6,210 nt of DNA. Origin: JAWOFN01 sp046497505 [NCBI: bacterium] (GTDB lineage: Bacteria > Blakebacterota > Blakebacteria > Blakebacterales). This document shows, one piece after another, positions 1,671 to 6,210 of this stretch. The number at the start of each line of letters is the position of its first letter. Position 1 is the first letter of the stretch. The notes beneath the pieces are model-generated. The model was not told where the DNA came from and ran no database searches. It was given only the letters and a program-made list of their open reading frames with translations. The stretch covers positions 1 through 6,210 of the forward strand of contig JAWOFN010000129.1 of assembly GCA_046497505.1 (NCBI GenBank), given 5' to 3'. A program made the position numbers and the translations under genes.

Positions 1671-1720
1671 CTGCTCCGCTCTCGCCTTGGCCCTTCCCGG
1701 CCCGTACTGTGCCCCTGAAT

Positions 1721-1726
1721 GGGAGG
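1721..1726 (+). promoter_or_regulatory. Shine-Dalgarno site of the lipoprotein gene
   Basis: GGGAGG lies 10 nt before the ATG at 1737 and just inside the alternative ATG at 1719, which has no purine-rich site of its own. It therefore favours the shorter product, which also has a normal signal-peptide n-region. Confidence 0.65.
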
Positions 1727-1736
1727 CTGGTTGTCT

Positions 1737-3308
1737 ATGTCAATACGTGGACTATGCGCGCTGGCGGCAGGTGTGCTGCTGCTCAGTGCGGCGTGCTCGG
1801 AACCGACCGATTACGACGATTCCATCTACCCCGACCCCGGCAACTCCGGGACCCTCGTGCTCAGCGATGTGCAGGAGAGCGCGCTGGTCCTGAGCTGGGG
1901 CGCCGCCATCGATGAGCAGACCGCCCAGGACCGGCTGGAGTACCGGGCCGTGCATTCCACCCGCGACGACATCGGCACGGCCGGGGCCGTGGCCGGTGCC
2001 TCCTCCCCCCTGTTGGACTGGACCGAGGACACCACGAGCGTCCCGGTGAGTGGACTGGCCGCGGACAGCACGTACTACTTCAACGTGGCGGTGCGTGACC
2101 ACGACGGGAACATGTCCGCCTACGTCATGACCGAGCGGCCGGTCCAGGTGCAGGACACCCTGCCGCCCACCGCCGGCAGCTCGGGGACCATCCTGCCCGT
2201 CCAGGTACACAAGACCGACGTGGTACTGGAGTGGGTGCCGGCGACCGACAACGCCACCGCCTCCGGGGACCTGAGCTACAAGCTGGTGCGCTCGAGTTCC
2301 TCGGACATCGGCACCGTGGCCGACGCCCAGGCCAACGGCACGCTGGTCCAGGACTGGTCGAAGGACTACACGAGCTGGACGGCCGGCGGCCTGACCATGG
2401 GCACCACCTACTGGTTCAACGTGCTCGTGCAGGACGAGGCGGGGAACAGGACCGCCTACCAGATGATGGAGGTGGAGACCTTCCAGCCGTATGTGTACTG
2501 GTCGGACTCCACGTTCGAACGGATGATGCGGGCCGATCTGGACGGCGATAAGGTGGAGACCGTGATCTCCTACGATGACCTGGCTGCCTATGGGGCCAGC
2601 GATCTCGACATCAACCCCGTCACCGGGAAGCTGTACTGGGCCCGATATGGTTCCAGTCAGATCTACCGCTCGAACCCCGACGGCAGCTACCTGGAACTCT
2701 TCCTGGACAGCACGGACGGGATGGACACCCCCCTTGGTCTGGCCATCGACTCCGGGCGGGGCCTGATCTACTGGGTCGACCAGGGCCTGGACTCGATCCG
2801 GCGGTCCTGGCTGAACGACTCGGGATCCGAGGCCGTCGTCACCGGTCTGACCGGGGGGCCTTTCGGGCTGGCCCTGGACCCGGAAGGGGAGAAGCTGTAC
2901 TGGACCGACTGGGGCGATGACACGGTCAAGCGCGCGGATCTGAACGGCACGCTCCAGGAGACCCTGCTGGACAACCCGGGCGAGGGGATCGACAGCCCGT
3001 ACGGCATCGACCTGGACCTGGACGCGGGGAAGATCTACGTCTCGCATGGCGTCGACGCGCGGGTCGTGCGCTGCAACCTGGATGGGAGCGGGTTCGAGGT
3101 GGTCGTCACCGGGGGCACCGGGCACCGCTACTTCGGGGTGAGCGTGAGTCCTTCCGACGGCATGCTCTACTGGTCGGACACGGAGACCGCTCAGGTCTGC
3201 CGGGTCCCGCTGGGGGTGACGGGCATCACCCACGACAACGCCCAGGTCGAGATCGTGGTGAGCGGTATCAACACCGTCCCCGAGTTCCTGCACGTGCTGG
3301 ACTTCTGA
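1737..3308 (+). CDS. lipoprotein with two fibronectin-III-like domains and a six-bladed YWTD beta-propeller
   Basis: The product (523 residues) is a predicted exported, lipid-anchored protein of unknown partner. The N-terminus MSIRGLCALAAGVLLLSAAC is a signal peptide ending in a lipobox-like LSAAC, with the lipidated Cys at 20. Residues about 38-138 and 141-248 are two FN3-like repeats that align with each other: both contain a DIGT motif, a DW turn, an STYYFNV/TTYWFNV strand and a DxxGNxxAY end. Residues 252-523 form an LDL-receptor class B type propeller with one motif per blade: VYWSD 253, LYWAR 299, IYWVD 344, LYWTD 387, IYVSH 433, LYWSD 477, spaced 43-46 residues. The C-terminal HVLDF strand probably closes the ring. 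Such modules usually bind proteins or glycans at the surface, and no catalytic motif is visible. An in-frame ATG at 1719 would add six residues. A terminator follows at 3419, so the gene seems monocistronic. Confidence 0.9.
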   Translation: MSIRGLCALAAGVLLLSAACSEPTDYDDSIYPDPGNSGTLVLSDVQESALVLSWGAAIDEQTAQDRLEYRAVHSTRDDIGTAGAVAGASSPLLDWTEDTTSVPVSGLAADSTYYFNVAVRDHDGNMSAYVMTERPVQVQDTLPPTAGSSGTILPVQVHKTDVVLEWVPATDNATASGDLSYKLVRSSSSDIGTVADAQANGTLVQDWSKDYTSWTAGGLTMGTTYWFNVLVQDEAGNRTAYQMMEVETFQPYVYWSDSTFERMMRADLDGDKVETVISYDDLAAYGASDLDINPVTGKLYWARYGSSQIYRSNPDGSYLELFLDSTDGMDTPLGLAIDSGRGLIYWVDQGLDSIRRSWLNDSGSEAVVTGLTGGPFGLALDPEGEKLYWTDWGDDTVKRADLNGTLQETLLDNPGEGIDSPYGIDLDLDAGKIYVSHGVDARVVRCNLDGSGFEVVVTGGTGHRYFGVSVSPSDGMLYWSDTETAQVCRVPLGVTGITHDNAQVEIVVSGINTVPEFLHVLDF

Positions 3309-3616: not shown

Positions 3617-5992
3617 ATGGCCGCACTACCTTTCGGGAAGCTGGAGCTGGACCCCCGGCGCAGCGTCTACCTCGACATCACCGACGCCCTCGGGGAGTTC
3701 CCGGTGCCGGATGAACAGATCCAGCTCTGGGAGGATTACGATCTGATCTACCGGACGCTCTGCGGCATCCTCTACAACTTCGTACCGAAATCGGGCCATC
3801 CCGGCGGCAGCGTCTCCAGCGGGCGGATCGTCTCCAGTCTTCTCTTCAACACGCTCGACTACCGCTTCAAGGACCCCGAGGCCCCCGAAGCGGACCTCAT
3901 CAGCTACGCCGCCGGCCATAAGGCCATGGGCCTCTACGCGATGTGGGCCCTGCGCAACGAAGTCGTGCGCGCCGCTTCCCCCGACATGCTCCCCGACGAT
4001 GAGAAGATGCAGCTCCGCCTGGAGGACATGCTGGGCTTCCGGCGCAACCCCACCCAGGAGACCCCCCTCTTCGCGGAATACCGCGCCAAGGCCCTGGACG
4101 GCCACCCGGCCCCCCTGACCCCCTTCATCAAGCTCTCCACCGGTGCCTCCGGTGTGGGGGTACCCTCCAGCTTCGGCCTGGGCTTCGGGGCCATGGACAG
4201 CTACCCGGACGACCCGCCCCTGGTCCACGTCCTCGAGGGCGAGGGCGGCATGACCGCCGGCCGGGTCTCGGAGGCCCTGGCCACGGCGGCCTCGGCCAAT
4301 CTCTGGAACATCAAGCTGCACCTGGACTGGAACCAGTCCTCCATCGACTCGGACAAGGTGTGCCGCGAGGGCGAGATGCCCGGCGACTACGTGCAGTGGG
4401 ACCCCAGGGAGTTCTGCTTCGTCCACGACTGGAACGTGATCTGGGTGCCGGACGGTTTCGACTACCAGCAGGTGCTCGCCGGCCAGCGCGCAGCGAAAGA
4501 GAAGATCAACGACCAGCCCACTGCGGTGGTCTACCGCACGGTGAAGGGCTGGCAGTACGGCATCGAGGGACGCAAGTCCCACGGTGCCGGCCACGGCTAC
4601 CTCAGCGAGGACTTTTACCAGACCCTCGAACCGGTGGAAGAGCGGTTCGGCGTGACCTTCCCCCGCCTGGAACCGGACGACGAGCCGGTGGCGGTGGAGC
4701 AGGCCTTCTTCGACACCCTCATGGTGGTGCGCCGCATCGTGGAGGAGAACGAGGAGCTGGCCTCCTTCTTCACCAGGCAGCTGAAGGACTCCGAGGAGCG
4801 CCTGGAGGAGAAGGGCCGCAAGCGCCGCAGCGACGGCCTTGAGCTGGAGGTCCTCTACTCCGGCGAGATCTCGGCCGAGGACGTGCCCGCCGAGCTCACC
4901 TACGAGCCTGGCAGCAGCCAGACCCTCCGTGGGGCCCTCGGTTCCGCCCTCGGTCATCTGAACAAGAAGACCGGCGGCGCCTTCCTGGGCGCTGCGGCCG
5001 ACCTGCTGGGATCGACCAGCATCTCCGACCTCAACGCAGACTTCCCCGAGGGCTTCTACAACGCGGTGACCAATTCCGGTTCCCGTCTCATCGCCGCCGG
5101 CGGGATCTGCGAGGACAACATGGGCGCCTTCATGACCGGGGTCTCCTCCTACGGAAGCCACATCGGCGCCGCCTCATCCTACGCCGCCTTCATCGTGGCC
5201 CTCGAGCACGTGGCGGCACGGCTCCACGGGATCGGTCAGCAGACGAGGAAGATGTACCTGGGAGCGCCGTACAACACCTTCATCATGGTCGCCGCCCACG
5301 CCGGTCTGAAGACCGGTGAGGACGGCCCCACCCATGCCGACCCCCAGGCGCTGCAGCTCGTCCAGGAGAACTTCCCGAAGGGGGTCTCCATCACCCTCAC
5401 CCCCTGGTCGGCGGACGAGGTCTACCCGATGCTGGTGGCCGCGCTGAAGAAGCGCCCCGCCCTCCTGGTGCCCTTCGTGACCCGGCCGTCCGAGAAGATC
5501 GCCGACCGCGAGGCCCTGGGACTCCCTCCGGCTTCCGCTGCGGTGGAGGGGGTGTACGCCATGCGCCGGGCCGACCCGGGGGCGGACGTCCACCACGGCA
5601 CCCTGGTCCTGCAGGGGAGCGGCATGACGAACACCTTCGTGCACAGCGTCCTGCCCCGCCTGGACGAGGAGGGGCTGAACATGAACGTGTTCTACGTCTC
5701 GAGCGCCGAACTCTTCGATCTCCTCCCCGAGGAACGGCAGGAGGAGATCTATCCCTCCCGCCTGGCGGACGAGGCCATGGGCATGACCGGCCTCACCCTC
5801 CCCACCATGTACCGGTGGGTGAACAGCCGTGAAGGGCGCCGGCGCACCGTGCACGCCTTCCGCAAGGGGCACTACCTGGGGAGCGGCAAGGCCCACAAGG
5901 TCCTGGAAGAGGCGGAGCTGCACCCCGAAGGACAGTGGCAGGCCATCAAGGAGTACGCGGAATGGATGGTCTCCCGGAGCGACGTACAGTAA
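3617..5992 (+). CDS. tkt: transketolase, long divergent form
   Basis: This thiamine-diphosphate enzyme of the non-oxidative pentose phosphate or Calvin pathway moves two-carbon ketol units between sugar phosphates in the cytoplasm. At 791 residues it exceeds the usual 620-680. The order is the pyrophosphate-binding domain (about 1-335), a charged helical linker (about 350-425), the pyrimidine-binding domain (about 431-600) and the C-terminal domain (about 650-791). By eye against yeast transketolase the key residues are kept: His61 (SGHPGGS), His101 (AAGHKAMG), His163 (DGHP), His322, Arg438, Ser466, activating Glu499 (GICEDNM), His561, Asp569 and His573 (GEDGPTH), and Arg623. Differences are GEG instead of GDG at 208-210 in the magnesium site, and Ile516 and Ala519 where yeast has the aromatic cofactor pocket. 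The TTG-initiated extension at 3485 is rejected because of the strong ribosome site. The gene probably has its own promoter behind the lipoprotein terminator. The family is secure; exact substrates are not shown. Confidence 0.93.
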   Translation: MAALPFGKLELDPRRSVYLDITDALGEFPVPDEQIQLWEDYDLIYRTLCGILYNFVPKSGHPGGSVSSGRIVSSLLFNTLDYRFKDPEAPEADLISYAAGHKAMGLYAMWALRNEVVRAASPDMLPDDEKMQLRLEDMLGFRRNPTQETPLFAEYRAKALDGHPAPLTPFIKLSTGASGVGVPSSFGLGFGAMDSYPDDPPLVHVLEGEGGMTAGRVSEALATAASANLWNIKLHLDWNQSSIDSDKVCREGEMPGDYVQWDPREFCFVHDWNVIWVPDGFDYQQVLAGQRAAKEKINDQPTAVVYRTVKGWQYGIEGRKSHGAGHGYLSEDFYQTLEPVEERFGVTFPRLEPDDEPVAVEQAFFDTLMVVRRIVEENEELASFFTRQLKDSEERLEEKGRKRRSDGLELEVLYSGEISAEDVPAELTYEPGSSQTLRGALGSALGHLNKKTGGAFLGAAADLLGSTSISDLNADFPEGFYNAVTNSGSRLIAAGGICEDNMGAFMTGVSSYGSHIGAASSYAAFIVALEHVAARLHGIGQQTRKMYLGAPYNTFIMVAAHAGLKTGEDGPTHADPQALQLVQENFPKGVSITLTPWSADEVYPMLVAALKKRPALLVPFVTRPSEKIADREALGLPPASAAVEGVYAMRRADPGADVHHGTLVLQGSGMTNTFVHSVLPRLDEEGLNMNVFYVSSAELFDLLPEERQEEIYPSRLADEAMGMTGLTLPTMYRWVNSREGRRRTVHAFRKGHYLGSGKAHKVLEEAELHPEGQWQAIKEYAEWMVSRSDVQ

Positions 5993-6009
5993 GGAGGCCG
6001 CGGTCTCCT
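5992..6009 (+). other. hairpin at the transketolase stop codon, no T-tract
   Basis: AGGAG pairs with CTCCT, and the inner bases extend the stem (one G-U) to a CGCG loop. No run of T follows, so it is not a convincing intrinsic terminator. No other terminator for the transketolase gene is visible before the intron end at 6063; a second small hairpin (CCAGG/CCTGG, 6039-6054) also lacks a T-tract. Confidence 0.35.
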
Positions 6010-6062
6010 GAGTCCCGGAGGCGTGCATGGGGCCCGAACCAGGCTCTCCCCTGGAGCATGAT

Positions 6063-6177
6063 ATCGGGTAGGGCGTGGCGCGTCGCACCGGTAGGCATGA
6101 CCCTTGGCTGTATCCGCCCTTTCCGGCTTCGTGCCCGTTTAGGGTCGGCCATGGGCCCGGCACGCCACCGCCCTCCC
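6063..6177 (-). ncRNA. group II intron domain VI with bulged branch-point A, unusually long
   Basis: Arms 6066-6080 and 6163-6177 pair over 14 bp, leaving one unpaired A (minus strand, plus-strand T6069) and one unpaired G opposite C6168. Nested inside are CCGG/CCGG (6088-6091 with 6157-6160), GGC/GCC (6094-6096 with 6148-6150) and GACCCT/AGGGTC (6099-6104 with 6141-6146). The bulged A is the predicted lariat branch site. At about 115 nt the domain is two to three times the usual size, and it contains no open reading frame of note. Confidence 0.62.
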
Positions 6178-6180
6178 ACA

Positions 6181-6210
6181 CCACCGGACATACGGTTCCG
6201 TATCCGGCGG
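6181..6210 (-). ncRNA. group II intron domain V hairpin (catalytic stem)
   Basis: The minus strand gives CCGCCGGA paired with TCCGGTGG (8 bp, one G-U), an upper TACG/CGTA stem with a GAAC loop, and a TG dinucleotide bulge on the 3' side. The 8-bp lower stem, 2-nt 3' bulge and a C-G-C triad whose G forms the G-U wobble match domain V architecture. At 30 nt it is shorter than the usual 34, and GAAC is not a GNRA loop. The hairpin ends exactly at the window edge, so its base could extend further. Confidence 0.65.

What the first reader, a model, noticed from the sequence alone, without database searches (positions are those of the whole stretch)
6063..6210. Unlabelled group II intron 3' terminus antisense to and downstream of the transketolase gene
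A non-coding stretch that looks empty folds on the minus strand into domain V (8-bp lower stem, 2-nt 3' bulge, CGC triad with G-U wobble) followed by domain VI. Domain VI has 14 bp, a single bulged A exactly 7 nt from an AT 3' end, and the terminal sequence CTACCCGAT. These independent matches are unlikely to occur together by chance. They predict a retroelement with its catalytic core, and perhaps a reverse transcriptase, just right of the window.
Basis: partly seen in the sequence, partly recalled or inferred. Interest (0 to 1): 0.75.

Follow-up and report, generated by a model that had tools for sequence, protein, structure and literature searches.

The report
Group II intron tail with portable module
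The end of this stretch is the tail of a self-splicing, self-copying RNA element, and that tail carries a small folded RNA piece that also sits at other places in quite different elements of the same broad kind, as if it were a plug-in part.

Summary
In detail: window 6063-6210, minus strand, is the 3' end (domains V and VI) of a bacterial group II intron. Rfam misses it at its curated cut-off (31.4 bits against 40): the window edge trims domain V and domain VI is unusually long. Six copies at six sites agree up to the same last base, CCCTACCCGAT, and then part. A relative carries a reverse transcriptase closest to the solved GsI-IIC enzyme right before domain V, so this is a group IIC retroelement. 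The core and RT "to the right" cannot be checked: the window ends in the first pairs of domain V and no genome is held.

Domain VI holds a ~65-nt structured RNA (6089-6153). A model trained only on copies in domains I and IV of other introns finds it in the window at 63.4 bits (E 1.4e-18). The module occurs in domain I of two other intron types, in domain IV of IIC and of a further type, and here in domain VI. Stems covary, internal loops are nearly fixed, some sister introns lack it. No Rfam family matched it; all 16 strong places found in Gemmatimonadota lie in group II introns. Its function, a docking handle for a shared partner, is inferred.

The parts
6181..6210 (-). domain V of a group IIC intron, cut by the window edge (about the first base pair is missing)
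   Evidence: RF00029 31.4 bits; 87-89% to plasmid-borne introns in the rows listed; fold
6066..6178 (-). domain VI, enlarged
   Evidence: fold z -3.82; RNAalifold on four copies
6069..6069 (-). bulged A, presumed branch point, 7th base from the 3' end
   Evidence: folds, invariant in the four rows of A1; role from general knowledge of group II introns
6063..6065 (-). last bases GAT of the intron; 3' splice site after 6063
   Evidence: six copies at six sites agree up to here
6089..6153 (-). portable structured RNA module inside domain VI
   Evidence: R3, trained only on domain I and IV copies, scores it 63.4 bits, E 1.4e-18; covariation
6116..6127 (-). apical hairpin of the module, GAAA loop (closing pair is G-G in the window)
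   Evidence: alignment A6, pair table
3617..5992 (+). transketolase-like gene next to the intron, opposite strand (neighbour, not part of the intron)
   Evidence: Pfam PF00456 and PF02779

Best explanation
The feature is the 3' end of a mobile group IIC intron (ribozyme plus, in relatives, a GsI-IIC-like reverse transcriptase) that inserted antisense and downstream of a transketolase-like gene. Shown: domain V, domain VI with the bulged A, an exact 3' boundary, and inside domain VI a ~65-nt RNA module that also occurs in domain IV of other IIC introns, in a domain IV-like place of one further intron type, in domain I of class E/F-like introns and in domain I of yet another type. Inferred: the module is a peripheral docking handle. 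Its nearly fixed internal loops are the binding surface for a partner common to these introns (a protein is favoured; an RNA contact is the alternative, given the GNRA-capped tip and receptor-like base), and binding helps the intron RNA fold, splice or be packaged for retrotransposition. Because it hangs on the outside of the ribozyme it can be moved between introns, by recombination or template switching of the reverse transcriptase, without breaking the core.
For: Identity of the intron. Same module across intron domains: R3 (13 domain I/IV copies; no domain VI copy, no window) finds 6 of 6 domain VI copies given (60.2-73.5 bits) and nothing else above 12.4 bits in the 20 loci searched. R1, built from four domain VI copies including the window, found 10 further strong places, 8 of them outside domain VI. 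Structure under selection: 18 sequences, 7 of 16 pairs change on both sides (1 of 500 shuffles as high), covariation 0.252 against 0.078 (0 of 500); without domain VI copies 7 of 15 pairs, 0.306 against 0.098 (0 of 500 for both). Portability: Cupriavidus and Paraburkholderia introns have it in a domain I hairpin where Bradyrhizobium, Microvirga and Alicyclobacillus relatives have only a short hairpin; seven other IIC introns read in G003, G326 and G286 have short domain VI without it. The RTs of a IIC host (L018) and of the class E/F-like host (L046) are 30% identical over the 192-residue aligned part. Context: the 16 strong places found in Gemmatimonadota lie in group II introns.
Against: No partner is known and no function was tested. 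The 16 places are not independent: the seven domain I copies are one intron family, 84-93% identical to L046; the domain VI copies are another; independent lineages number about five. The covariation counts were made on alignments fitted to the model, which lean towards its structure. Gapped percent identity is no help: the window module against single domain I or IV copies gives 0.69-0.80, but shuffled copies reach 0.76-0.81, so the case rests on the covariance model. A partner shared by Gemmatimonadota, Burkholderiales plasmids and a virus-collection contig would have to be widespread or brought along. The RT of the class E/F-like introns acting in trans is not favoured: among RF00029 hits read, domain V of that class appears in only one (G003) of the six genomes with domain IV or VI modules, though 3 of the 33 hits had no locus to read and the assemblies may be incomplete.
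Confidence: 0.5

Rival explanations
1. The module is a metabolite aptamer: a riboswitch-like sensor that lets the intron gate its own splicing or mobility by cell state.
For: Nearly fixed internal loops between covarying stems, as in ligand-binding RNAs.
Against: No Rfam riboswitch family matched it; no strong place outside group II introns was found, so no gene context points to a ligand; it sits in three different domains, which one gating mechanism would hardly fit.
Confidence: 0.2
2. The module is an RNA-RNA docking piece: the GNRA-capped tip and the receptor-like base (YAYGG / CCUA) dock with each other between arms of one intron or between intron molecules.
For: GNRA loop in all 18 sequences of A6 (17 GAAA, 1 GAGA); receptor-like flanks in many copies, the exact UAUGG/CCUAAG (recalled motif) in the diverged domain VI copies L086 and L089; the intron in L081 has a close copy in domain I and a weak match in domain VI.
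Against: The window's flank is CAUGG/CCUACC and its GAAA loop lacks a paired closing base pair; docking does not explain the conserved internal loops; no second copy was found in the IIC loci L018, L043, L044, L059 or L073.
Confidence: 0.2
3. No function: a neutral insertion spread by recombination or template switching between introns sharing a genome.
For: Some sister introns do without it; it sits in tolerant peripheral places; copies within one family are alike by descent.
Against: Stems covary while internal loops stay nearly fixed across intron types.
Confidence: 0.1
4. Chance hairpins, not an intron.
For: Rfam score below the curated cut-off.
Against: 78-80% identity over 136-148 of 148 nt in three Gemmatimonadota genomes and a common boundary at six sites; RT next to domain V in relatives.
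Confidence: 0.01

Closest known systems
Group IIC (class C) introns, e.g. that of GsI-IIC RT (PDB 6ar1); the Oceanobacillus iheyensis intron was recalled, not fetched
   Same: Domain V sequence type and 3' end CTACYCGAT shared with plasmid introns carrying RF02001/RF01998; RT stop at the start of domain V in L018 and RT closest to GsI-IIC RT.
   Different: Domain VI of the window has 99 nt where L001 has 21 nt between the same two motifs, and contains the module.
Class B introns with a 53-70 nt 3' extension, 'domain VII' (PMC3261151, abstract and section 6 read; PMC4424553, passages)
   Same: An extra RNA segment shared, even identical, between otherwise divergent group II introns.
   Different: That extension follows domain VI and moves the 3' splice site; here the module is inside domain VI (or IV, or I) and the 3' end is the ordinary one.
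Class E/F-like group II introns (RF02003 in domain I; domain V with a 4-bp stem and pentaloop by eye, the pattern PMC3494683 section 10 gives for classes E and F)
   Same: Carry the close module in domain I in Gemmatimonadota, and weak matches to it in domain VI.
   Different: Different class of intron; RT 30% identical over the aligned part.
Group II introns with extra 3' domains and alternative 3' splice sites (Clostridium tetani; PMC4424553, passages)
   Same: Variation at the 3' end of the ribozyme.
   Different: No duplication of domains V-VI in the window.

Membership tests
Group II intron | Domain V hairpin with conserved sequence and 2-nt bulge | tested here: met
   RF00029 31.4 bits, E 1e-4, truncated and below the curated cut-off; homologous introns; fold
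Group II intron | Domain VI with bulged branch-point A and AY 3' end | tested here: met
   Folds and boundary
Group II intron | Domains I-IV and GTGYG-like 5' end | not testable with these tools
   Window ends in domain V; no genome held
Group IIC (class C) retroelement | Class C reverse transcriptase upstream of domain V | tested here: inconclusive
   Outside the window; met in relative L018 (GsI-IIC RT best)
Group IIC (class C) retroelement | Insertion after a transcription terminator or attC site | not testable with these tools
   5' exon is outside the window; no terminator-like site in 5950-6210
Class B introns with 3' extension (domain VII) | Extension after domain VI, 3' splice site shifted 50-70 nt downstream | tested here: not met
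   Similarity of six copies ends at the ordinary end of domain VI
Any Rfam family for the module | Covariance model match to the module itself | tested here: not met
   At gathering scores, none in window, L043-L049, L058, L059, L062-L064, where intron models only span it as an insert; relaxed, none in L015, L018, L020 (E up to 1), and in the window (E up to 5) only a 3.4-bit lncRNA hit overlaps, besides the misplaced end of RF00029
11-nt GAAA tetraloop receptor | UAUGG/CCUAAG internal loop (letters recalled) | tested here: not met
   Window has CAUGG/CCUACC; exact motif in the diverged copies L086 and L089

The most novel reading that the evidence does not exclude
A previously undescribed, transferable RNA domain that several classes of group II introns have captured independently, in three different ribozyme domains, to be recognised by a common partner (protein or metabolite) that controls splicing or retrotransposition: a plug-in regulatory or packaging module for retroelements.
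Probability: 0.35. Interest if true: 0.8.

Novelty: new variant of a known kind. Interest (0 to 1): 0.6.

Why it matters
A conserved, covarying RNA module that appears in domain I, IV or VI of unrelated group II introns would be a clear case of domain swapping between natural ribozymes. It makes a direct test possible: what do very different self-splicing retroelements need in common? It also helps explain why this intron falls under Rfam's curated cut-off.

Tried and rejected
Rfam at curated cut-offs finds nothing in the window. Own-genome search is impossible. Phage records hold no similar DNA; E. coli genomes none for the L063 intron start. Viral contigs: 0 loci for a domain VI gap of 80-110, 10 for 48-78, which by eye are other elongated domain VI types without this module, 0 for an exact 23-mer of the window, and for module patterns 1, 1 (both L063) and 0. 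Of 9 genome-contig loci with a long gap, 3 (L015, L018, L020) have the module, 4 Lachnospiraceae or Hungatella loci have a different long domain VI, and L022 and L023 have tandem copies of domains V-VI.

Rows dropped: R1 hits of 22.1-26.5 bits (10 places, L050-L057, L060, L061) and R2 hits of 24.6-31.5 bits (4 places) were set aside as chance, because of the score gap (next strong hit 38.9 with R1, 65.2 with R2) and because the flanks printed look like protein-coding DNA by eye (10 of 10; 3 of 4, L077 not shown at the hit). No gene calls were made on them. Bacteroidota 0 of 247 and Bacillota 0 of 299, E up to 0.001, with the tool's stricter filters. Pseudomonadota genomes could not be sampled, only plasmids. 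both searched an order of 154 genomes and returned the same hits.

Results that weaken a side reading: in domain VI of class E/F-like introns outside Gemmatimonadota the matches are near noise (L119 13.7, L118 11.6, L120 9.7 bits, E 0.055-1.3; three hits of 9.3-9.8 bits lie elsewhere), and L121-L123 have none there. Percent identity between single modules does not separate real from shuffled.

A trans-acting RT of the class E/F-like introns was considered as the partner and is not favoured. A kink-turn or c-di-GMP-like reading of the internal loops was considered from memory and dropped without Rfam support. The host phylum of the window is not settled: its transketolase-like protein matches 11 of 150 Gemmatimonadota genomes at 47-54% (E up to 1e-50). 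In L043 no domain I was recognised, so the 5' end of a module-bearing domain VI intron stays undefined. Paper searches (two searches listed 15 of 99 and 12 of 43) showed no title or abstract start on such a module; they cover open-licence PMC papers only.

Full report
1. The observation. The minus strand of 6063-6210 reads as nearly all of domain V followed by domain VI. Rfam at its curated thresholds finds nothing in the window. With a relaxed threshold on 5980-6210, Intron_gpII scores 31.4 bits (E 1e-4, gathering score 40), cut at the window edge, and the model puts the end of domain VI in the wrong place because the real one is too long. Independent evidence is stronger. Plasmid-borne introns share domain V at 87-89% in the 20 of 31 records listed; of four fetched, L002 and L004 have an annotated group II RT ending just before it and L001 and L003 have none. 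In the three genomes behind L015, L018 and L020 the 148 nt match 1-148, 1-148 and 13-148 at 79, 80 and 78%. At six sites the copies agree up to CCCTACCCGAT and then part, so the boundary lies after window base 6063. The folds show a bulged A at window 6069. The intron lies antisense and downstream of a transketolase-like gene.

2. Class. All four plasmid relatives fetched carry RF02001 and RF01998 ribozyme domains. In L018 an RT frame of 265 codons, cut by the contig end, runs to the first bases of domain V; its best solved match is GsI-IIC RT, 263 bits, E 2.6e-77. L043 has an RT split over two frames with an internal deletion, ending at the same place, and L058/L110 in the same genome is similar only from about 110 nt before domain V, consistent with a truncated copy. 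Class C introns insert at terminators or attC sites (PMC4424553, passages); the 5' exon is outside the window, so this was not testable.

3. Within the domain VI stem lies a ~65-nt element, window 6089-6153. A genome-contig scan for this domain V type with 82-112 nt in that place gave 9 loci, 3 of them from Gemmatimonadota assemblies with a conserved version. A model of the element alone (R1, four domain VI copies including the window) was run on 298 Gemmatimonadota genomes: 12 strong places (38.9 bits or more), 10 of them new. With R2 (18 sequences, so most hits are its own training set) 12 of 395 genomes have 15 places at 65 bits or more, the next being 31.5. An order-level search gave 12 of 154 genomes, adding one genome and place: 16 places in 13 genomes in all, of which L073, L074 and L117 were in no training set of R1 or R2.

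4. Where it sits. Five places are in domain VI of IIC introns (L015, L018, L020, L043, L058; the window is a sixth copy). Three follow the IIC domain III directly, in domain IV (L044, L059 with RF02001 upstream; L073 by its flank). One, L062, lies in a domain IV-like place between a domain III-like stretch and an RT (by eye); its presumed domain V (L105) is not of the IIC type, so it is a further intron type. Seven are in domain I of class E/F-like introns (L045-L049, L074, L117; RF02003 in L045-L048), one family 84-93% identical to L046. Outside Gemmatimonadota the module is in a domain I hairpin of introns on Cupriavidus and Paraburkholderia plasmids and in a virus-collection contig whose intron is recognised only by alignment with these.

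5. Control for identity. R3 was built only from 13 domain I and domain IV copies. Run without filters on 20 loci it finds the window copy at 63.4 bits (E 1.4e-18) and the other five domain VI copies at 60.2-73.5 bits; the best anything else reaches is 12.4 bits. By contrast, plain gapped identity between single modules (window against L046, L044, L074: 0.77, 0.80, 0.69) is matched or nearly matched by shuffled copies (best of 500: 0.76, 0.80, 0.81), so the case rests on the covariance model and on the fixed positions.

6. Structure. Four stems: a short outer one, a 5-bp stem, a GGC/GCC stem and a GNRA-capped hairpin. In 18 sequences 91.6% of cells pair, against 80.6% shuffled and at most 51.1% with slid partners; 7 of 16 pairs change on both sides (1 of 500 shuffles as high), further pair types 13 (7 of 500), covariation 0.252 against 0.078 (0 of 500). 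Without domain VI copies 0 of 500 shuffles reach any of the five measures. The alignments were fitted to the model and one family supplies many rows, so these controls flatter. The loops between stems (about ACGGGCACGAAG and CGGANACNGCCAAGG) are nearly fixed.

7. Sisters without it. In alignment A5 four introns (L063-L066) carry the module where Bradyrhizobium, Microvirga and Alicyclobacillus introns have a short hairpin. Seven other IIC introns read in G003, G326 and G286 have short domain VI. In class E/F-like introns weak matches fall in domain VI in 9 of 10 loci (7.8-17.8 bits, E 0.0013-3.2, mostly one family); outside Gemmatimonadota such matches are near noise. That domain VI of that class is the module's older home is a guess.

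8. Mechanism. Shown: an intron 3' end, an insert, its fold, its recurrence in other domains and intron types. Inferred: an outward arm that is tolerated in three domains and keeps its internal loops is read by something. I favour a docking handle for a common partner, more likely a protein; an RNA contact through the GNRA tip and receptor-like base, and a metabolite aptamer, are live rivals. The simple idea that class E/F-like RTs act in trans on IIC introns is not favoured.

9. Known or new. The intron is a new member of class IIC. The nearest precedent for a shared extra segment is the 3' extension of class B introns, identical in some divergent introns (PMC3261151, abstract and section 6), which differs in place and effect. 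Seven paper searches listed nothing on such a module. Verdict: new variant of a known kind.

Noticed in passing
L022:1813-1930 (+) and L023:4045-4153 (-): Tandem duplication of domains V-VI in a Sphingobacteriales MAG and in Tumebacillus flagellatus, like introns with alternative 3' splice sites.
   Followed up: no
L016:7-131, L017:2415-2540, L019:823-947, L021:3466-3591: Lachnospiraceae/Hungatella introns of the same domain V type with a different long domain VI that contains a second 3' end-like stretch (CCCCTACTTGATTGCGCA or alike).
   Followed up: no
L064:2540-3500: On a Cupriavidus plasmid a IIC intron (RF02001, RF01998) appears interrupted after domain III by the start of a second group II intron that bears the module in domain I: a twintron or its remnant.
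   Followed up: partly
L001:2940-3570: A IIC intron with no annotated ORF inside, upstream of a DNA-binding protein gene (probably kfrA, recalled) of an IncP plasmid.
   Followed up: no
L005-L014: Ten virus-collection contigs carry introns of the same domain V type with domain VI elongated by about 28-31 nt relative to L001.
   Followed up: no
L083, L094, L104, L106, L107, L108: Another group II domain V type (GAGCCGAGTGGTGGAAATCTCC...) recurs in Gemmatimonadota genomes G002, G003, G119 and G326.
   Followed up: no
window 1719-3308 (+): Exported-looking protein (by eye) with fn3 and LDL-receptor class B matches between a phosphofructokinase and the transketolase-like gene.
   Followed up: no
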